Shown here: one piece after another, positions 26,741 through 42,657 of the stretch
Position numbering within the stretch: position 1 is the stretch's first letter
Layout of the letters: each line of letters starts with the position of its first letter
Source: a virus
IMG/VR virus record: IMGVR_UViG_3300033150_001454
Location: 1 to 50,589 of that record
Length of the DNA stretch: 50,589 nucleotides
Direction: 5' to 3' (one strand)
Made by a program: the position numbers and the translations under genes
The notes under the pieces: model-generated
Databases searched by the model: none
What the model saw: the letters and a program-made list of their open reading frames with translations, nothing else
What the model was told of the DNA's origin: nothing

Positions 26741-29002
26741 TCACCCTCTCACCTGCACTCCTTCCCATTCAATAAATGGTTTAAAGTCAAACTCTCTTTT
26801 AATCCTTTCTATATCCCACACCTTCTTGTCAAACTTAAGTGACTGTATCCTTGCTCCGTGTATCGTACCAGGCCTCGGATATAGACAGATATTAGCCTCA
26901 ACTCCTTCAGGCAGTTCTGGTATCTTATACCGCTTAGCTTTCTCCTCTCCTTCGCATCTCGTAAAGTCTCTTATATCGTGTAAGTGAACCCTGATGAACG
27001 TAGCTTTCTCTTCATATCTCAATTCCTTCTTCATTGATTTAGGCGCTTCTGCTTTGATGCCCAGCTCATTCAGGCGTCTTAATGCATTAGGACCGAACGA
27101 ACCAGCGACTACCTTAGTTACTCGGAATGATGCTATGAATTCAGCCGTTTTAGGGCCAGCAGGCGTCTCATCCTTATGAGGATTCTTGACGATTTTCTCA
27201 CCTATCTTGAAGTACGGTGCTCTCGCAAATACTCGTGATATACTCTCTTTATCCTCTTCTAATGCATAAGCGATCTTCTCCTCTTTCTTCATGCCTGGAA
27301 GTGCGGACTTTATAAATCTCCAAGTCTCACCATCAGACTTCAGCACATAATATCCTTTAAGTGAATCACCATAAAATACGAAGCTTCTAAACAGCTGAGA
27401 CTTCTCTATGAAATCAACCTTGCCTCTATCAAGAACGTAAACGTCAGTCCATACTCCTCCAACCTTTCTCCTGCCTTCAGCCTCCATCCATGTCTTATCA
27501 TAACACTTCTTCAATGTAACGACTTCAGACTCATCAATCTTATATTTCCTAGGATCCTTCTTGAGAGACCACTCGATCAGATAGTCTTCTCCTTCATCTA
27601 TTCTGATGTCGTAATGAGATCCTCCTTTCCACTCATGCTTGTGTAATACGAAGCTTCCCGATGCCTTCTTGATGTTAGACTTACTGAAGGAATAAAGATC
27701 AGAGCCTCTCTCCTCCTGCTCAAGCTTCCAGAACTTGCCCAGCTTGCCAGAGAACGAAAGTATTAATATCTCTTTGCCGTTTTTCCGCCTAGCGTCCACA
27801 TACACTGATCCCTTATCAAGTATCTTAACGTCCGCATTCAGCCTCTTACGAGGGTTGAATAACTCACCAGGTTTCAGCTTGCCTTCAAACTCAAACCATC
27901 TCTTAGGAGCCTGACCTATATACCCAACAACTGTAGGATGTACGTATAAAGGATTATACCACAACTCCCACGTCCTTATCTTATCTCCTTGCTTAATGTT
28001 CAAGAACCAATGCATCACGGGTACGTCTCTGACGACTTTCTGCCCTTTCCAGCTCATCTGCTGTAGAGTATACTGAGCCTCAGCTTTCAACAGCTCCTTA
28101 GTCTCGCCCCATTGCTCCTTAACCCATTCAAGCCATTCCTCAAATCTTTGCCTGTTCTTCTCTATCCACCACTTAGGTATCGGTATGAAGCCCTTAGGAG
28201 GCACCCATCCCGTCTTCTTACCTCTCTTAACTGCATACGGATCTTGATCACGAGGCACCCATCCTTCCCACATCAATTCAAACTTACCTGGCTTAGGCTT
28301 CTTAGTCTCAGGATCTATAACAGCTTGCTTAACTGCTCTCATGTTTATCCTTATCTTCTCAAATGTAAGTTTGTGTTTCTTCTTAGCAATTGAGTCTAAG
28401 AAATACTCGTGATACCAAGGCTTTTGAGCACCGAATGTAATGTACCCCTTATCAACTATCAAGAATCTACCTGGTTCAAATCTGGTCGCCCCTACAGTGC
28501 CAGGTTTAACTTCAAATGTCTCACCTGTATCCATCTTTATGATGAGCTTGTCTAAGTCTGCTTCAACTTCATATGAAGTGCCCACATCAAGTTTCCATAG
28601 TTGATCGAAATGAATGGCTGAGCACGGACCCCACTCTTCCTTCCAGAATAGCCATACTTTAGGTTGTCTAGCCTTAGTCTCACATCTACACTTCTTGTTG
28701 TTCATGCCAGGGACGGGTCTGAACGTCCAATCTAATTTCTCGATGAGAGAAGGAAGCTCATCTACTGTTGGGGCATGGTCTATCTTCGGATTGTCAAGGA
28801 TAGTCCAGCCTACCAAATGATTGTTTACCTCGCATCTAAAATCGAAGTGATGACTACGCCCGCGCCAATGCGATTGTAATACATACCTTACCTTGCCATT
28901 CTTCTCATTCGGAGGAAGCTCTAGGTAGATGGGCTTGCTCCATGGAATCTTAGGCTCTTCCTTCATCAGCAAATCCTGTGTGATTCTCATTCTTCTCGCC
29001 AC
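26741..29002 (-). CDS. Large protein with two LigD-type 3'-phosphoesterase-like domains
   Basis: The 753-residue protein has two segments resembling the phosphoesterase (PE) domain of bacterial LigD. The first is around residues 38-70 (RYVLQSHWRGRSHHFDFR, then VGWTILD). The second is around 450-490 (FVLHKHEWKGGSHYDIR, then IEWSLKKDP). Both match the LigD pattern FVVQxHxARxLHYDFR with its His and Asp residues; LigD-PE removes 3' phosphates and ribonucleotides before end ligation. Regions 240-380 and 560-753 are unassigned. It overlaps the ligase-bearing gene upstream by 16 bases and lies between portal and prohead protease, so it may be an internal virion protein. Confidence 0.75.
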   Translation of the reverse strand: MARRMRITQDLLMKEEPKIPWSKPIYLELPPNEKNGKVRYVLQSHWRGRSHHFDFRCEVNNHLVGWTILDNPKIDHAPTVDELPSLIEKLDWTFRPVPGMNNKKCRCETKARQPKVWLFWKEEWGPCSAIHFDQLWKLDVGTSYEVEADLDKLIIKMDTGETFEVKPGTVGATRFEPGRFLIVDKGYITFGAQKPWYHEYFLDSIAKKKHKLTFEKIRINMRAVKQAVIDPETKKPKPGKFELMWEGWVPRDQDPYAVKRGKKTGWVPPKGFIPIPKWWIEKNRQRFEEWLEWVKEQWGETKELLKAEAQYTLQQMSWKGQKVVRDVPVMHWFLNIKQGDKIRTWELWYNPLYVHPTVVGYIGQAPKRWFEFEGKLKPGELFNPRKRLNADVKILDKGSVYVDARRKNGKEILILSFSGKLGKFWKLEQEERGSDLYSFSKSNIKKASGSFVLHKHEWKGGSHYDIRIDEGEDYLIEWSLKKDPRKYKIDESEVVTLKKCYDKTWMEAEGRRKVGGVWTDVYVLDRGKVDFIEKSQLFRSFVFYGDSLKGYYVLKSDGETWRFIKSALPGMKKEEKIAYALEEDKESISRVFARAPYFKIGEKIVKNPHKDETPAGPKTAEFIASFRVTKVVAGSFGPNALRRLNELGIKAEAPKSMKKELRYEEKATFIRVHLHDIRDFTRCEGEEKAKRYKIPELPEGVEANICLYPRPGTIHGARIQSLKFDKKVWDIERIKREFDFKPFIEWEGVQVRG

Positions 29003-32000
29003 GTGTAATAATATGGTTTTACCCTTCTACACTTATAATAATTAGCCAGCTTACAATCTATTGGATACTTAAGCTCCTCAACTCTTAGCTTCACATCCTT
29101 TGACTTCCACACTCCGTTCACTAATATCTTGATCCGATCCATAAGCGGGCATATGTCTTTATTAAATGCATATTTTTCTGGACATAAAGGTAGTTTTATC
29201 TCAATTATCTCCTCGTCTGCTTTCTCAGTTCGCTCATAAGGTCTCGTCCCAAGCTTCGAAAGCTTCTCTACTACGTCTATAGGATCAGGATCTTTCTTCT
29301 CAGGTCTCCATAATCCTGCTTTCGGAAACATCCATGTGTAAAATATCTTACCGTTCTCTTCGCTTCTCTCTATTCGGATAGGCATGACTGTTAAGATATC
29401 ACCTTCATTCTTCTTGCCTTTTACATTATAAACTGTACCAATTCTTAGGTACTTTCTGCCTTCGAACTCCATAATATCTTGTTCTCTATACTTGTTCAAA
29501 TCCTTCTCAGGTATTGGTCCTACAACACCTTGCCACGTGAACACATCTCTAGTGCCTCTCACAAGATGAGGCTTAAGTACCATTACATCCAATTCCTTAA
29601 GGTTCTTAAGCTTAGCCCAATCCTTATTCCTTGCAGCTCTATCATACCTTATCTTATAGACTGAGTCAGTGGTTTTATATACTGCTCCTTCAGAATTTGG
29701 GAAGTATCTAGCCCACTTCGAGCATTTGAAGAATTCCCTCATGTCGTTTGCCGTCTTTGACTCAACTATATGGAAGTGTTTGCCTTCTTTTAATATCTCT
29801 TTAAGCTTATCATACCTCTCAATCGCAGGCTTCTGCGTAAAGTCTTCTCCATCTACATACAACAGATCATGCACATGAAATATTACTCGTTTATCGTCTA
29901 AGGAAGAAGGCTTAGCTGCGATCCACTTCACTAAGTCCTCTCTCGGTATTTGCCTGTATTTAGTCCATAACTTGTCATTTTCTGGATATTCTAATTTATC
30001 AGAATATTCCACTATCTCAGCCACTAAGATAGCATCCTTAGCTTTCAATAACTTGGGCAATTCCTTAACTGATTCCTTGAAGGCTTTAATCCTGTTTCTC
30101 AACTGATCTTCAGTGAAGAATCCTATTGGCTTACCATCCTTAACATGTATCTGAAAGCTCATTCCGTCATACTTAGGCTGAATCATTATGCCCCTATCTA
30201 TCCTAGAAGCCGCCCACTTAGTCCACGCATTCTCTACTTTCCAGAACTCATTCTTCTGCCATCCCGATTCAGGCTTTTGAGGCTGGGATGGCTTCCCTAT
30301 TCTCAGCGAGCTGTCTTTCTCAAGCTTGCCTTCTCTCGATATGTAGAGCGGAATTGACAGACCTATGCCGCCCCTCGTATCGAATATGAACTCAAGCTTC
30401 TCCCTCACGTCATTCCTCGTACACGCATGTATCAAGGCTCTCTTCACTTCTGGTAAAGGTTTCTCAGAAGCTACCCTGATATCTATGTCGTGATGTGTTA
30501 CCCATCCCCTATTAGCTATACCTCCTACGAGGTATATTGCTGGAACGTCAGCTGGCAGCTTAATAACGTCAGGGAATGAGTCTATGACTTCCTGTAGAGT
30601 GATCTTCTTCTCAGCCTTCTCCCATGGAGGGTACTCCTGTATCCAGAACCTAGCCTCTTGGCTCAGCTCGTCATTTATGTGCCTCTCAATCCCTCTCCTC
30701 TTCATCTCGTTCTCTACGAATATCTCAGCATTCAATAGAGGCTCAGTAACCTTCTTCTTCTCTTCATATATCTTATGCAGTTCTTCGTATAATTCCTTAA
30801 GCTCTTTGTCGCTAAGCTTTTCTACATAATGATCATCTATCTTATCTAGATCTATAGCTTTATGTACTAGTACTGTAGTACTATAATTATCATAAGCCAT
30901 TTCAGCCCCTAATTTAGTCAGCTCTTTATCCAATTTGTCCCCTAATTTGATAGGTTCAGATCCGAAATGAGTGAATATGATTCTCTTTACTCCAGCCTCC
31001 TTACACCACTCGATCTGCTTAGGAATGCCTGCATGACCGATAGCTTCGTCTCTCTTCTCATCCCACCTCACTAATCCATCTTCTCTAAGAGTGGATCCAT
31101 CACCTATGTACAAGTCACAACCAGACAAGAATTTCTTTCTGTGTTCTTCTCGTATACTCAGAACATCAGATGCATAACAGATTCTGTATCCTCCAACTGA
31201 GATGAATAATGCAACGTTAGGAGCTTTCGTAGAATGCAGAACTGGTACAGAAATAACTTCAATATCTCCAACTCTGAATGCACTCCTACGCTTGAACACC
31301 GTCTTATTGAACTTATAATCCTCTTCTTTGTAGTACTCAGAATGAGTTGAAGCATCAGTGATGAATACAGGCACGCCTACCTTCTTGTCTTTAAGACCGA
31401 ATAAGTGATCGGGGTGTGCATGAGTAATTATTATGGCATCACAATCTGGTAAAGCTCCATTCACATCTCCCCAATCAATCAACAGCCTCGTCTTGCCATC
31501 ATCTATCAGCAGAGAAGACCTCTTATTATGCTTCGCTGATTTCTCGTCTACATATCCACGAGTGCCAAGAAACGTCAAAACCACATCAGATTTGCTCAAT
31601 CTTGGTATCTTTATGGGATAATTAGCTATTAATAATTCTCTCTTAGTTGGATAATCGCTCCTTAGGGCTCTCCTCGTTAAGAAGCTCTTTACTTCGAAGC
31701 CTCCTTCCTTGAATAGTTTTCCGATTAATGGATCATCACTAAAACTAAGCAAAAACTTGCCTTTTATCTTCTTACAAGCCTCAAATAACCTCTTCTTGAA
31801 TCGCTCAGGCTCCTCATTCTTTATATCTTCATCCATGTACGGAGGGTCTAAATAGAAGAACGTATCTGAAGAGTCGTATTTCCTTAGGATTTTTTCAAAG
31901 TCTTCATTTTTAATAATAGTATTTTTTAAGCGCTCTCTATAATCCTCAGGTCTCGTCACGTATCCACACTTAGTTCTCTCATCCTTCCTATGTGCAAAGT

Positions 32001-33000
32001 TCTCCATATTCCCTCCATAAGAGTGCATGTTGAGGTATATGAGCTTGTAAGCTTTCTCCACATCTTCTCTAGGATCCAATTTCTTAAGCTTATCGAACTT
32101 CTCTTCGGATGGAGTATAATCCATGCTCTTAAGTTTCTTTAGCTGCTCATCGGATGCATCCCTCAGGAACTTTAATAGAAACACATATCTCTCGTCTATA
32201 TCGTTCAGTACTTCTTTGCTTACAGGTTCCTTCTTCCAGAATAACGAAGCTCCTCCAGCGAATGGTTCTACATAGACCTTATGAGGAGGAATATTCTCCA
32301 AGAAGATCTGCACTTGCCTATCCTTACCGAGAGGATGAGCGAAGGGCTTTTTCATCTTCTTTATCTGAACATCGTTAATCTTCACTTGTGCACCCTGAGG
32401 TCTCACGTATTCCTTAGGCTCTTCAAACTTCTTAAACTTAAACTTGTAGACGTAGTATCGAACCCTGTCACCCCACCAATCCCTCGCCTCCTTATCCGTT
32501 ACAAGATGGTATTTTCTCAAGTTCTGAAATCCATTTTCGTCTACTTCAGCCATCCCTGTAAGGGTGATTATCCCATATACCTTATCGCCGCACAGGTACA
32601 TGGGATGGTGTAGGAGGTTCTCGAACCTGCGAGCTTTGACTATGAGTGTCTTTATGCCTTTCCATATAAGCCGAGCATGAGGCTCTACGAGATAGAGACC
32701 GTCTAAAGCTTTTGAAAGATATATGCCCTTTCTGGACAGCCTTCTTGAAATTTTACGAAAAAGCTCCTTTCCATGCTCATTATACTTCTCAGGATGAAAC
32801 TCTATGCCTCGTTTATGTAATTCTTCAGCTATCTTAGTGGCTATATCTATTATCTCTTTGTATGAATGCTTAAGCCTTTTCCCTTGTTTCTTAGACGAGT
32901 ACCAAGCAAATGCTATCCTGTAGTCGTCCTGAAGTACCTTAGTACTGTACTTATTAGGATTGTACGTACTTATGTCTTGTATTTTAAGTAAGAGACTCAT
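28987..33000 (-). CDS. Giant multidomain protein: ASCH/PUA-like, Dam methylase, MBL, NTase, DNA ligase
   Basis: A 1,337-residue polyvalent protein. Order: helical 1-100. PUA/ASCH-like 105-205 (PHARLIWKGIKTLIVK). DNA adenine methylase 215-465 with FAGGASLFW (248-255) and DPPY (385-388). Metallo-beta-lactamase fold 470-715 with HAHPDH (527-532), His589, Asp612 and His678. Nucleotidyltransferase 795-895 (VGGIANRG...HHDIDI). ATP-dependent DNA ligase 920-1215 with KYDGMS (Lys943 nucleophile), AEIVEY and EGAVYK. A C-terminal cysteine cluster follows. All key residues look intact. The location between portal and prohead protease suggests a virion-packaged enzyme for DNA modification and end repair. 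Domain calls are strong, biology inferred. Confidence 0.88.
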   Translation of the reverse strand: MSLLLKIQDISTYNPNKYSTKVLQDDYRIAFAWYSSKKQGKRLKHSYKEIIDIATKIAEELHKRGIEFHPEKYNEHGKELFRKISRRLSRKGIYLSKALDGLYLVEPHARLIWKGIKTLIVKARRFENLLHHPMYLCGDKVYGIITLTGMAEVDENGFQNLRKYHLVTDKEARDWWGDRVRYYVYKFKFKKFEEPKEYVRPQGAQVKINDVQIKKMKKPFAHPLGKDRQVQIFLENIPPHKVYVEPFAGGASLFWKKEPVSKEVLNDIDERYVFLLKFLRDASDEQLKKLKSMDYTPSEEKFDKLKKLDPREDVEKAYKLIYLNMHSYGGNMENFAHRKDERTKCGYVTRPEDYRERLKNTIIKNEDFEKILRKYDSSDTFFYLDPPYMDEDIKNEEPERFKKRLFEACKKIKGKFLLSFSDDPLIGKLFKEGGFEVKSFLTRRALRSDYPTKRELLIANYPIKIPRLSKSDVVLTFLGTRGYVDEKSAKHNKRSSLLIDDGKTRLLIDWGDVNGALPDCDAIIITHAHPDHLFGLKDKKVGVPVFITDASTHSEYYKEEDYKFNKTVFKRRSAFRVGDIEVISVPVLHSTKAPNVALFISVGGYRICYASDVLSIREEHRKKFLSGCDLYIGDGSTLREDGLVRWDEKRDEAIGHAGIPKQIEWCKEAGVKRIIFTHFGSEPIKLGDKLDKELTKLGAEMAYDNYSTTVLVHKAIDLDKIDDHYVEKLSDKELKELYEELHKIYEEKKKVTEPLLNAEIFVENEMKRRGIERHINDELSQEARFWIQEYPPWEKAEKKITLQEVIDSFPDVIKLPADVPAIYLVGGIANRGWVTHHDIDIRVASEKPLPEVKRALIHACTRNDVREKLEFIFDTRGGIGLSIPLYISREGKLEKDSSLRIGKPSQPQKPESGWQKNEFWKVENAWTKWAASRIDRGIMIQPKYDGMSFQIHVKDGKPIGFFTEDQLRNRIKAFKESVKELPKLLKAKDAILVAEIVEYSDKLEYPENDKLWTKYRQIPREDLVKWIAAKPSSLDDKRVIFHVHDLLYVDGEDFTQKPAIERYDKLKEILKEGKHFHIVESKTANDMREFFKCSKWARYFPNSEGAVYKTTDSVYKIRYDRAARNKDWAKLKNLKELDVMVLKPHLVRGTRDVFTWQGVVGPIPEKDLNKYREQDIMEFEGRKYLRIGTVYNVKGKKNEGDILTVMPIRIERSEENGKIFYTWMFPKAGLWRPEKKDPDPIDVVEKLSKLGTRPYERTEKADEEIIEIKLPLCPEKYAFNKDICPLMDRIKILVNGVWKSKDVKLRVEELKYPIDCKLANYYKCRRVKPYYYTWREE

Positions 33001-39141: not shown

Positions 39142-40125
39142 ATGGTGAGATTCATAGGGATCGGAAAGGAATCGACCTACAGGACGGCCGTATCAGTAAC
39201 CGAATACATAGATGTAATAAGCGAAAGCATAGAGCCAAGCTGGGATCGAGTGAAGCTCGAACAAGCAGGATACAGATTCGCCACTGATAAGCTTCCAGGA
39301 GGTTTTAAGGAGACAGGCTCTATAGACCTCTACGTGGATGCACAGAGTATAAGCAAGTTCTTCGAAGGACTGCTCGGAAGTGTCTCCACATCAGACGACG
39401 GTCAATCCCCAGTAGTTGCATACAAGCACACGATAACTCCAGCCACATCACTGCCCTCATACACGCTTGAAGTGTTCCCTGAATCGCCTGCGACTTACTC
39501 CAGACAGATAGCTGGCACTGGAATACTCTCAATGAGGCTAGAAGCTGAAGCTGGATCTCCTATAACCGCATCAATAGGCATTCTTGGAGCAAAAGAAAGC
39601 TTGATAAGCCCCTCATCAACAAGCCCTACATTCGCTAATGTTTCTCCACTGCCATTCAACAATTCAAGCGTAGAGATGGAAGACTCTGCGATTGCGACGG
39701 TGGAAGCATTCAGACTCGATATATCCAATACGATACCAGACGATGCATTCGTGCTCAACGATATGTTTCTACCAGCGCTGAGGCTTGAAGGAGGAGAAGT
39801 AACTGGAGAGATGGACATAGCCTTTACAGCTTGGAGCTACTACCAGAGATTCTACGGATCAGCCAGTGCAACAGAACCGTCAGAAAGCCCTTCAACCGTG
39901 AAGATAGAGCTCATAGGTACTGGAGGTTCTACAGGATCTTCAGGCGCTGGATACGAGAACTACAGCTTGCATATAACACTGCCTAAATGCAGGCTCGATA
40001 CATCAAGGGCTAACTTCGATAGAAGGAGCAGGATAGTACAGAGGTTAGGATTCGAAGCCCTATACGATAGCTCGAGTGGCTATGCGATACAGGTGGAGAT
40101 AGTCAATACCAAGTCAGCTCCTTAG
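39142..40125 (+). CDS. Major tail tube protein
   Basis: The 327-residue protein follows GGAGG with ATG at 39142. It is beta-rich with alternating strands and Ser/Thr/Gly loops, starting FIGIGKESTYRTAVSVTEYI, a phrase common at the start of tube proteins of archaeal and bacterial siphoviruses. It contains two related domain-like halves (around GGFKETGSIDLYVDAQSIS and EGGEVTGEMDIAFTAWSYYQ). It lies immediately before the tail chaperone pair and tape measure, the standard place for the tube. High confidence. Confidence 0.85.
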   Translation: MVRFIGIGKESTYRTAVSVTEYIDVISESIEPSWDRVKLEQAGYRFATDKLPGGFKETGSIDLYVDAQSISKFFEGLLGSVSTSDDGQSPVVAYKHTITPATSLPSYTLEVFPESPATYSRQIAGTGILSMRLEAEAGSPITASIGILGAKESLISPSSTSPTFANVSPLPFNNSSVEMEDSAIATVEAFRLDISNTIPDDAFVLNDMFLPALRLEGGEVTGEMDIAFTAWSYYQRFYGSASATEPSESPSTVKIELIGTGGSTGSSGAGYENYSLHITLPKCRLDTSRANFDRRSRIVQRLGFEALYDSSSGYAIQVEIVNTKSAP

Positions 40126-40138
40126 GAGGTGAACTAAA

Positions 40139-40540
40139 CTGGTACAAAAGCCGATTTCTCCTAAGGAGTATAGGAAGAAGGCTCCATCCACAAAGCTGGT
40201 CGAATTGCCATCCGGCGCCGTATTCGAGATAAAGCAGATAGACATCCCTACGCTTAATGAACTTCAGAAGGTATTCGGGAAGATGCCGACTACACAATTG
40301 AGTTCTGAGAACATCGCTGAATATCTTCCTGAACTTACAAAGATATTGTTACCAAACGGAGTGGCACAGCCTGAGGTGACAATAGAACCAACTGAAAATT
40401 CGTTAGGCATAAACGAGATAAATATAGGCGACCAGATAACTCTCATATTCGAGATAATGGACTTCAGCGGGATAGGTGAGGCGGGACAGAGGCTTAGGCG
40501 CTCCTTTCGCAGACGGACCACTAGGAAGGCTAGTAGCTAA
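40139..40540 (+). CDS. Tail assembly chaperone, short form (gpG-like)
   Basis: The frame is open upstream of the TTG at 40205 as far as a CTG at 40139-40141, 9 bases after GGAGG. Starting there gives VQKPISPKEYRKKAPSTKLV then ELPSGAVFEIKQI, the LPSG motif typical of tail chaperones, so I take CTG as the likely start. The product is about 133 residues, with a helical C-terminus ending in an Arg-rich tail. It lies between tube and tape measure, and a longer form is probably made by frameshift into 40476-40712. Confidence 0.72.
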   Translation: MVQKPISPKEYRKKAPSTKLVELPSGAVFEIKQIDIPTLNELQKVFGKMPTTQLSSENIAEYLPELTKILLPNGVAQPEVTIEPTENSLGINEINIGDQITLIFEIMDFSGIGEAGQRLRRSFRRRTTRKASS

Positions 40541-40712
40541 CATGAGCGTAATGCTCCACATTCGACCTTCAGACTTAGTAGAGCTTGAAGGTGGAAGTGT
40601 GGAGAGGCTCCTATTTGATGCTGTCGTGCTCAGTAAGGCAGATGTGACTGAGCCTACCAGTACGAAAGAATTGATAAGGAGATCGAGGGCGAGGCTGGGA
40701 TTGTATGTCTGA
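40476..40712 (+). CDS. Tail chaperone frameshift extension (gpGT-like)
   Basis: The frame opens right after a TAG at 40473 and overlaps the chaperone gene by 65 bases, shifted by +1. In other siphoviruses this partner is translated only by ribosomal frameshifting to give a long chaperone that recruits the tape measure. The product contains GAPFADGPLGRLVANMSVML then HIRPSDLVELEGGSVERLLF. Independent initiation at ATG 40542, one base after the short form's stop, is the alternative. The heptamer CTTAGGC (40493-40499) is a likely slip site. Confidence 0.68.
   Translation: MRRDRGLGAPFADGPLGRLVANMSVMLHIRPSDLVELEGGSVERLLFDAVVLSKADVTEPTSTKELIRRSRARLGLYV
40493..40499 (+). other. CTT-AGG-C: candidate +1 frameshift heptamer
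   Basis: In the zero frame of the chaperone gene the codons are CTT AGG C, the same heptamer that drives +1 shifting in yeast Ty1. Skipping the A moves translation from CTT to GGC, fusing the short form to the 40476-40712 frame exactly inside the overlap window (40476-40540). AGG is not rare here, so the mechanism may differ. Confidence 0.5.
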
Positions 40713-42657
40713 GAGAAGAGTGGATGTAATAGTAAGATGGCTGGAAGAACATCCAGAAGTCAAGGAAAAGCTAGCGAAAAGCATCGATGAAATAAGAACG
40801 AGATTTCCAGCCCTTGCACAGGCTACCTCTGCTGTTATTTCTAAAATGAGGGAATTTGGCAAAACATTCCAGCAAATTAATTTTCGAACCGCAGAAGGTG
40901 CAACAAGTCTTGCAGAATTAAGTGATAGAATGCAACGAGCTTTAATTTCCGTCGGAAGTCTTGATGCACGATACGTTGATTTTGTAAAAACTGCACAGAT
41001 TGCTATGAGGGAACTGCGTAAATCTGGTCTTTCTACAGACGAATTACGAATCGCAATGTCAAGACTGAATGAGATCGCAAAGGAAGTAGCTCAGAGTATT
41101 GGTGAAAAAGAAGCACCAGCCCTTCTCCTTACCAATGAAATCTTGAATCGTCAATTACGGGGAATCCAATCTGTTTCACAAAGGATGGAAAGATGGTCCA
41201 GAAGAATTAATATTCTGGGATGGCGTCTTTCATGGATGGCTTATAGGCTCATGATGATGGGCAGGATCATAACGAGATGGATGCTCAGACCCGTAAACTT
41301 TGCCATAAATGCTCTGACAAGATGGGAGAGATCCCTTGATACAGTTGCTACTTCTATGGGTTTGTTGGCGGCTACAGGACAGCTTACGGGAGAAAGACAA
41401 GAATTCTTACAAAGGACGATGGATGCGTTAATAGAGGAAGGACCGAAGATACAAGGAGCTTTTCAATATGTTCAATCTGCTATGATAGGCTTAGTGACTC
41501 AAGCTGGTGAACCTCTTTCTCAATTTTTCTTTGCACTTGGTGATATGATAGCTTCTCTTGCTCCTATCATTGAATCAGCGGTCATCCCTGCTTTGACTGA
41601 GCTTGTTAAAATATTTATCCAGTGGTTGCCAACAATTAAAGAAATTATCGAGCTTGCTTTACCTCCATTCATTGAAGGCTTGAAGGAAATAGGACCGCTA
41701 CTTTTAGGCTTCTTAAATTGGATTAAGCCTCTCATCCCATTTCTTGCAAGATTAGCAGGTATGTTCGCACCATTCGCAATGCTTTTAACAGGTATAGGCA
41801 TGGCTCTCTATTTCATCACTCCGGCTCTTCAATTATTTTCTGGACTATTAGGCGGTTTGCCCAAAATCTTCAGTTTTGTTAAAGACCATATCGGGGCATT
41901 CAGGACTGCTTTAAGCTTCTTGAGGGGAGGCTTCGGTAAAGTAGTAGGCTTCATTACGGGTCCTCTTAAGTCTGCATTCGGCACTCTTGTTGGAGTATTT
42001 AGCAAAGTTGGAAGCTTTATCGGAAGTGTACTGACTAAGGCTATTTCAGGATTAGGCTCGATGTTCAGCTTCTTGGCTGCACACCCCATCGCATTAGTGA
42101 TTATTGCGATAGGTGCATTGATTGGTATTCTCATTTACCTTTATAATACGAATGAGGATTTCAGGAATGCTGTGGATAACGCATGGAACACCATCAGGAG
42201 CACTATTTTAAGTGCCATAGAAGCCATACAAGGAGCATTTAAGAGTTTCTTGGATTGGATTGATGGTCTAAGAAAAGGATTCACTGATTTTGTGTCTGGG
42301 ATTACGAGATTGTTTGGAGGCGTCACTCAGCAGACTGAAGAATTTAAGAAGAGTCAGGAAGAATTAGGAGAGACAATCGAAGATATGTATGGTCATTCGA
42401 TAGGCAGGGTAATTGCAAGAGATCTTTCCTATGCGATAGACAGCGTACAAGAAGCTCAAAGAGTCTTCAGTAGAGCTAATCTCGGTATCACTGGAGGTGT
42501 AGGAGTGGGAGTACCTGGTGCTACCACTGCTACTCAATACATCAATATCTCAGCTCCCATAACTATAGAGTCCATATCTAGTGAGTTAGATTTAGATACC
42601 GTAAGAGATGCAGTTACTGATGCGTTAAGCGATGCGATAAGGAGGGTAAGGCGATGA
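40705..42657 (+). CDS. Tape measure protein
   Basis: The 650-residue protein has a helical N-terminus (about 1-190) and hydrophobic segments around 330-400 (LLLGFLNWIKPLIPFLARL; PFAMLLTGIGMALYF). Another set lies near 455-480 (HPIALVIIAIGALIGILIYL), with an amphipathic C-terminus after that. Length of hydrophobic helices and place between chaperones and distal tail genes define it as tape measure. At about 1.5 angstrom per residue the tail would be near 100 nm. Codons between roughly 40.9 and 41.2 kb use CGN for Arg more than elsewhere, hinting at a mosaic origin. Confidence 0.88.
   Translation: MSERRVDVIVRWLEEHPEVKEKLAKSIDEIRTRFPALAQATSAVISKMREFGKTFQQINFRTAEGATSLAELSDRMQRALISVGSLDARYVDFVKTAQIAMRELRKSGLSTDELRIAMSRLNEIAKEVAQSIGEKEAPALLLTNEILNRQLRGIQSVSQRMERWSRRINILGWRLSWMAYRLMMMGRIITRWMLRPVNFAINALTRWERSLDTVATSMGLLAATGQLTGERQEFLQRTMDALIEEGPKIQGAFQYVQSAMIGLVTQAGEPLSQFFFALGDMIASLAPIIESAVIPALTELVKIFIQWLPTIKEIIELALPPFIEGLKEIGPLLLGFLNWIKPLIPFLARLAGMFAPFAMLLTGIGMALYFITPALQLFSGLLGGLPKIFSFVKDHIGAFRTALSFLRGGFGKVVGFITGPLKSAFGTLVGVFSKVGSFIGSVLTKAISGLGSMFSFLAAHPIALVIIAIGALIGILIYLYNTNEDFRNAVDNAWNTIRSTILSAIEAIQGAFKSFLDWIDGLRKGFTDFVSGITRLFGGVTQQTEEFKKSQEELGETIEDMYGHSIGRVIARDLSYAIDSVQEAQRVFSRANLGITGGVGVGVPGATTATQYINISAPITIESISSELDLDTVRDAVTDALSDAIRRVRR

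What the first reader, a model, noticed from the sequence alone, without database searches (positions are those of the whole stretch)
40476..40540. Ty1-type CUU-AGG-C heptamer in the tail chaperone overlap
Seen: the short chaperone frame reads CTT AGG C at 40493-40499 within the 65-base overlap with a +1 frame that opens right after a TAG and continues to the tape measure. Known: tail assembly chaperones commonly use programmed frameshifts, mostly -1 and sometimes -2 or +1; CUUAGGC is the Ty1 +1 site. Inference: this virus may use +1 shifting, which would be unusual for an archaeal virus.
Basis: partly seen in the sequence, partly recalled or inferred. Interest (0 to 1): 0.75.

Follow-up and report, generated by a model that had tools for sequence, protein, structure and literature searches.

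The report
UUU_CGC +1 frameshift, tail chaperone

Summary
It is absent from all four close relatives. It occurs 13 times in the window against 5.5 expected, and AGG is a common codon here. Nine bases downstream, TCC_TTT_CGC (40502-40510) is invariant in all five viruses. There the coding constraint switches from the 0 to the +1 frame, before the ATG at 40542. It is the UUU_CGN +1 site known from influenza PA-X and amalgaviruses (PMC3498833, PMC5052127), already proposed for HF1-like haloarchaeal viruses (PMC7230728). In-frame TTT_CGN lies in the overlap of 20 of 23 chaperone lineages (expected about 1), from Archaeoglobales-associated, haloarchaeal, actinobacterial and unassigned viruses. HHTV-1 and methanogen virus Drs3 have UUU_CCN. 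The codon before UUU is free, so a -2 slip, as GenBank annotates for haloviruses, is unlikely. Best reading: P-site tRNA-Phe slips UUU to UUC at a rare CGC codon, giving a G/GT chaperone pair, with fusion ...LRRSF|ADGPLGR.... No product was measured. The window is a new member of a known kind; the breadth is the more interesting part.

The parts
39142..40125 (+). tail tube protein gene upstream
   Evidence: Pfam Phage_tube_2 E 2e-23, PHROG tail protein
40139..40540 (+). short tail-assembly chaperone (G product, 133 aa), probable CTG start after GGAGGTGA
   Evidence: relatives start with ATG at this position; AF2 fold matches tail chaperones
40473..40475 (+). TAG that closes the +1 frame upstream; the shift must lie after it
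40493..40499 (+).
   Evidence: not conserved in 4 of 4 close relatives; 13 copies in the window
40502..40510 (+). proposed +1 shift site UCC_UUU_CGC; slip on UUU_C at 40505-40508
   Evidence: invariant in 5 of 5 close relatives, preceded by variable columns; TTT_CGN in 20 of 23 lineages
40509..40712 (+). T part read in the +1 frame after the slip (ADGPLGRLVANMSV..., 67 aa)
   Evidence: +1-frame purifying pattern from the site onward; fusion of 190 aa
40538..40540 (+). 0-frame stop TAA, 11 codons after UUU
40542..40544 (+). ATG that could allow independent initiation of the T part (rival)
   Evidence: conserved in the close clade only
40705..42657 (+). tape measure protein gene downstream
   Evidence: PHROG tape measure E 1.5e-21

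Best explanation
This is a lambda G/GT-type tail-assembly chaperone pair whose long form is made by programmed +1 ribosomal frameshifting at UCC_UUU_CGC (40502-40510). Most ribosomes read on in frame for 10 more codons and stop at TAA 40538, giving G (133 aa). A minority pause with tRNA-Phe on UUU in the P site and CGC (the second rarest sense codon here) in the A site. tRNA-Phe then slips one base forward from UUU to UUC, which its GAA anticodon pairs perfectly. The next codon read is GCA at 40509, giving the 190-aa fusion ...QRLRRSF|ADGPLGRLVAN.... By analogy with lambda, the excess G part coats the tape measure and the T part recruits the tail tube. Shown here: conservation of the site, the switch of coding constraint at it, the gene order and the fold. 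Inferred: that the slip occurs, its efficiency, the tRNA mechanism and the role in assembly.
For: (1) TCC_TTT_CGC is invariant in the window and four relatives, while the columns just upstream vary. (2) Summed pairwise synonymous/non-synonymous codon differences, upstream of the site: 33/42 in the 0 frame, 12/68 in +1. Between the site and the 0-frame stop: 5/46 in the 0 frame, 37/12 in +1. In that stretch no variable column is a 0-frame third position and 8 of 10 are +1-frame third positions. This pins the junction and puts +1 translation upstream of ATG 40542. (3) In-frame TTT_CGN lies in the overlap of 20 of 23 lineages, with 1.04 expected from each locus's own codon pairs; TTT_C is the commonest in-frame tetramer, in 21 of 23. 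Among 15 lineages examined after the motif was noticed it is in 13, with 0.95 expected. (4) In L022 and L030 the open overlap is only 20 nt and holds the motif. (5) Of four chaperones picked by fold alone, three have UUU_C at the 0/+1 junction (Hawkeye CGC, HHTV-1 CCA, Drs3 CCT). (6) Gene order tube, chaperone, tape measure. Top fold hits are tail-assembly chaperones: Wollypog and Predator in BFVD at E about 1e-4, and HK97 2ob9 at Z 6.5.
Against: No protein or reporter data. ATG 40542 is kept in the close clade, so some T product could start independently. CGN is common in high-GC hosts (own knowledge), so A-site rarity cannot explain the motif everywhere. Three of 23 lineages lack TTT_CGN at the junction: L013 has TTT_TGT, L033 has TTT_CAA, Leopard has no TTT in its overlap. 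Lineages share ancestry, so the P values overstate independence. No conserved downstream RNA structure was found.
Confidence: 0.88

Rival explanations
1. The downstream frame is expressed only by independent initiation at ATG 40542, one base after the TAA, by termination-reinitiation.
For: ATG is conserved in the five close relatives, and TAAC-ATG spacing suits reinitiation.
Against: The +1 frame is under protein-level constraint upstream of the ATG (37 synonymous against 12 non-synonymous). L016, L022, HRTV-13 and HSTV-2 have no start codon within 16 codons after the slip, yet keep the T domain.
Confidence: 0.07
2. A Mu-like -2 slip leads to the same frame, as GenBank annotates for related haloarchaeal viruses.
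For: Records MZ334510, MZ334494, MZ334514, MZ334521 and MZ334522 say putative -2 frameshift; the resulting frame is identical.
Against: A -2 slip needs tRNA-Phe to pair with N2-N3-U taken from the preceding codon. That codon is TCC, CCC, AAG, CAG, GAG, GAA, CGA, GAC, ACC, ACG, AAC or CGG, which never gives UUU or UUC. The conserved bases are UUU plus the C after it, as a +1 slip requires.
Confidence: 0.03
3. Ty1-type +1 shift at CUU_AGG_C, 40493-40499.
For: Heptamer present in frame inside the overlap.
Against: Absent from all four close relatives with the same overlap. The +1 frame between it and UUU_C shows no protein-level constraint. AGG is common in this virus (19.5 per 1000). The heptamer is frequent by chance.
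Confidence: 0.02

Closest known systems
HF1-group haloarchaeal viruses / HSTV-2 (Hafunaviridae) tail chaperone, TTT-CGC +1 proposal (PMC7230728)
   Same: Same gene position, frame and motif; HSTV-2 shares 12 identical bases, TCC TTT CGC AGA.
   Different: tblastn of the window fusion finds no match in the phage collection, so the proteins are far apart; the host here is probably a thermophilic Archaeoglobales archaeon, not a haloarchaeon.
Influenza A PA-X, UCC_UUU_CGU, and plant amalgavirus UUU_CGN +1 sites (PMC3498833, PMC5052127)
   Same: Same P-site UUU_C, same CGN A-site codon, the same UCC before it as PA-X; direction +1 shown for PA-X by mass spectrometry.
   Different: Eukaryotic RNA viruses and unrelated genes; here a DNA virus translated by (probably) archaeal ribosomes, and nothing measured.
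Phage lambda G/GT and its relatives (-1 frameshift tail chaperones)
   Same: Gene order, two overlapping frames, C-terminal extension by frameshifting.
   Different: Lambda-type sites slip -1 on X_XXY_YYZ-like heptamers.
Actinobacteriophage tail chaperones (Krampusvirus, Wollypogvirus, Lambovirus, Predator, Konstantine, Hawkeye)
   Same: TTT_CGC or TTT_CGT at the 0/+1 junction; same fold.
   Different: Bacterial high-GC hosts where CGN is not rare; some records annotate a joined product, several two separate proteins.

Membership tests
UUU_CGN (PA-X-like) +1 frameshift site | in-frame UUU_C followed by CGN near the 0/+1 ORF junction | tested here: met
   TTT_CGC 40505-40510
UUU_CGN (PA-X-like) +1 frameshift site | site conserved and coding constraint switches frame there | tested here: met
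   5 of 5 close relatives and 20 of 23 lineages
UUU_CGN (PA-X-like) +1 frameshift site | UCC as the codon before UUU | tested here: met
   UCC in the window clade, L011, L030 and HSTV-2; other codons in most other lineages
UUU_CGN (PA-X-like) +1 frameshift site | trans-frame product shown by mass spectrometry or reporter | not testable with these tools
   needs an experiment
lambda G/GT-type tail-assembly chaperone | two overlapping frames between tail tube and tape measure genes | tested here: met
lambda G/GT-type tail-assembly chaperone | chaperone fold | tested here: met
   AF2 pLDDT 83; BFVD top hits tail-assembly chaperones at E about 1e-4; HK97 2ob9 Z 6.5, rmsd 5.2, 98 aligned, a middling Z
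lambda G/GT-type tail-assembly chaperone | binding to tape measure (G) and tail tube (T) | not testable with these tools
   needs an experiment
Ty1-type +1 frameshift | conserved CUU_AGG_C | tested here: not met
   0 of 4 close relatives
Ty1-type +1 frameshift | rare AGG codon in the A site | tested here: not met
   AGG 19.5 per 1000 in the window; host tRNA levels unknown
Mu-type -2 frameshift | P-site tRNA can re-pair two bases upstream | tested here: not met
   preceding codon free, never giving UUU or UUC

The most novel reading that the evidence does not exclude
UUU_C followed by CGN (less often CCN or CAN) is a general +1 recoding signal used across the three domains: by tail-assembly chaperones of archaeal viruses (Archaeoglobales-associated, haloarchaeal, methanogen) and bacterial phages, and by eukaryotic RNA viruses. 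It rests on an intrinsic property of tRNA-Phe on UUU_C and not only on rarity of the A-site codon. Many +1-type tail chaperones, now annotated as -2 or as two separate genes, would use it.
Probability: 0.7. Interest if true: 0.75.

Novelty: new member of a known kind. Interest (0 to 1): 0.58.

Why it matters
It places the shift in this virus to the base and corrects the proposed signal. It extends a motif known from eukaryotic RNA viruses, and proposed once for haloarchaeal viruses, to a further archaeal virus group and to many bacterial phages. It conflicts with the -2 label in GenBank haloarchaeal virus records and gives a simple annotation rule for +1-type tail chaperones. It raises a testable question: why CGN after UUU, even where CGN codons are not rare.

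Tried and rejected
Ty1 heptamer as the site (not conserved). A -2 slip (no re-pairing possible). Independent initiation alone (constraint begins before the ATG; several relatives lack a nearby start codon). Downstream RNA stimulator: the window alone folds with z -3.0, but the four relatives have z -1.3 to +0.5 and RNAalifold gives little covariation, so it is dropped. Rfam: no match. tblastn of the window fusion and of L011, L016 and L030 fusions against the phage collection: no match. Pfam and PHROGs on the window chaperone: nothing significant; two relatives match DUF7391, best E 4e-6. ChaoS9, picked by fold, has TTT_CCA, but its +1 frame there does not look like a T domain; it is not counted as a +1 shifter. 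GBK1, GMA3 and L018 have their downstream frame at -1 and are outside the +1 set. Two papers reported to describe HSTV-2 (PMC3737338, PMC3592136) are not held.

Full report
Observation. The window is an IMG/VR virus record of 50,589 bases. The 0-frame chaperone ORF runs to TAA 40538-40540. The +1 frame opens after TAG 40473-40475 and runs to 40712. CTT_AGG_C is in frame at 40493-40499. Upstream lies a tail tube gene (Pfam Phage_tube_2), downstream the tape measure. The heptamer itself is not remarkable: 13 copies in the window against 5.5 expected in dinucleotide shuffles.

Relatives. Searches with the chaperone and the tail tube gave three IMG/VR relatives and one contig in an Archaeoglobales MAG (L023). 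All four keep an overlap of the same length, but none has CTTAGGC: the corresponding codons are TTA CCC CGT, CTG CCC AAG, CTA CCG AGA and CTC CCG AAG. All five viruses have TCC TTT CGC next.

Where the frame changes. Over the five aligned sequences, counts of synonymous/non-synonymous pairwise codon differences are 33/42 (0 frame) and 12/68 (+1 frame) upstream of the site; 5/46 and 37/12 between the site and the 0-frame stop; 11/279 and 212/93 after the stop. In the overlap after the site, variable columns fall on +1-frame third positions (8 of 10) and never on 0-frame third positions. The sequence is thus used as protein in the 0 frame up to the site and in the +1 frame after it, and +1 use begins before ATG 40542. 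The 0-frame tail beyond the site is also of low confidence in the model (pLDDT below 50 at residues 126-133).

Breadth. Searches with alignments found distant relatives of about 25-34% identity and one more through the tail tube (L022). Their 0/+1 junctions read TCC TTT CGC (L011), CCC TTT CGT (L012), CAG TTT CGC (L014), CCC TTT CGC (L015, L016), AAG TTT CGC TGA (L022) and TCC TTT CGA (L030); L034 reads CGG TTT CGC. A tblastn lead to Micrococcus phage Kurnik opened the actinobacteriophages: Kurnik AAC TTT CGT, Krampusvirus GAG TTT CGT, Wollypog CGA TTT CGC, Lambovirus GAC TTT CGC, Predator and Konstantine ACC/ACG TTT CGC. Haloarchaeal Hafunaviridae: HSTV-2 TCC TTT CGC AGA, HRTV-13, HRTV-19 and HSTV-3 AAG TTT CGC, HRTV-25 GAA TTT CGT, HRTV-27 AAG TTT CGC. 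Exceptions: L013 TTT_TGT, L033 TTT_CAA, and Leopard with no TTT in its overlap.

Statistics. Over 23 lineages, in-frame TTT_CGN lies in the overlap of 20, with 1.04 expected from each locus's own in-frame codon-pair frequency; nominal P 5e-30. The motif was noticed in the first eight lineages. The 15 lineages examined afterwards gave 13 with 0.95 expected (nominal P 3e-17). Lineages are not independent. Taking five deep groups of the later set (L030, L033, L034, actinophages, Hafunaviridae) as 4 of 5 leaves about 2e-7, a hand calculation from the per-lineage values. As a check not based on sequence similarity, four chaperones taken from the fold-search list were read: Hawkeye has TTT_CGC; HHTV-1 (Haloarcula) TTT_CCA; Drs3 (Methanobacterium) TTT_CCT in a 20-nt overlap; ChaoS9 does not look like a +1 shifter.

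Direction. +1 and -2 lead to the same frame. A -2 slip would need tRNA-Phe to pair with a codon made of the last two bases of the preceding codon plus U. The preceding codon is free across lineages and never gives UUU or UUC, whereas the base after UUU is nearly always C, which lets tRNA-Phe (anticodon GAA) move from UUU to UUC. GenBank records of Hafunaviridae nevertheless say putative -2 frameshift.

Codon context. In the window CGC is the second rarest sense codon (2.4 per 1000) and AGG is common (19.5 per 1000). That suits a pause at CGC and argues against a Ty1-like pause at AGG. In high-GC actinobacteria CGC is not rare (own knowledge), so rarity cannot be the whole explanation; the amalgavirus paper raised the same doubt (PMC5052127). 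This remains unexplained.

Protein. AF2 on a 14-row alignment of the 0-frame product gave pLDDT 83. BFVD top matches are tail-assembly chaperones of Wollypog, Predator, Hawkeye and Onyinye at E about 1e-4. In the PDB the HK97 tail chaperone 2ob9 scores Z 6.5 and YqbN Z 6.8, both middling.

Literature. PA-X: UCC_UUU_CGU, +1, mass spectrometry (PMC3498833). Amalgaviruses: UUU_CGN (PMC5052127). Haloarchaeal HF1 group: TTT-CGC with +1 proposed (PMC7230728). HSTV-2 +1 very likely, and -1 in HVTV-1 and HCTV viruses (PMC5009743 and PMC8211752). PRFect (PMC10885494) treats three equal bases as a forward motif but does not name UUU_CGN in its main text. No paper in the held library was found that describes UUU_CGN in bacterial phages; subscription journals are mostly missing, so this is not proof of absence.

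Verdict. The window is a new member of a known, so far untested kind. Direction: reader right. Site: reader wrong. What is established here is comparative; no translation product has been seen. The host is inferred only from one relative contig in an Archaeoglobales MAG.

Noticed in passing
window 40139-40141: The chaperone seems to start with CTG after a strong GGAGGTGA motif, where relatives have ATG; the first ATG/GTG/TTG in frame (40205) would remove conserved residues. Could be a true CUG start or a base error.
   Followed up: partly
window 28987-33000 and 26741-29002, - strand: Between portal and prohead protease genes lie two very long ORFs: 1337 aa with D12 adenine methyltransferase, metallo-beta-lactamase and ATP-dependent DNA ligase domains, and 753 aa with weak LigD_N and Nitro_FeMo-Co matches. 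Odd content for a head gene cluster.
   Followed up: partly
window 48297-49085, - strand: Papain-family cysteine protease (Pfam Peptidase_C1 E 3e-36) with a proline/glutamate-rich repeat tail, next to the tail genes.
   Followed up: no
window, 13 places (11 on + strand): CTTAGGC is about twice as frequent as expected and mostly on the + strand; cause unknown.
   Followed up: no
L057-L061 (Hafunaviridae records): GenBank labels the tail chaperone a putative -2 frameshift although a UUU_CGN +1 site is present.
   Followed up: yes
L046, L048, L049, L052, L053, L054, L055, L064: Several actinophage records annotate the two chaperone frames as separate proteins, without the joined product, although TTT_CGN sits at the junction.
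   Followed up: partly
L056 (Mycobacterium phage Leopard): A +1-type chaperone overlap without any TTT codon; junction near GTT_CTC. Its shift site is unexplained.
   Followed up: no
L018: A distant relative whose extension is in the -1 frame near ACAAAAAAG: one family seems to use both directions.
   Followed up: partly
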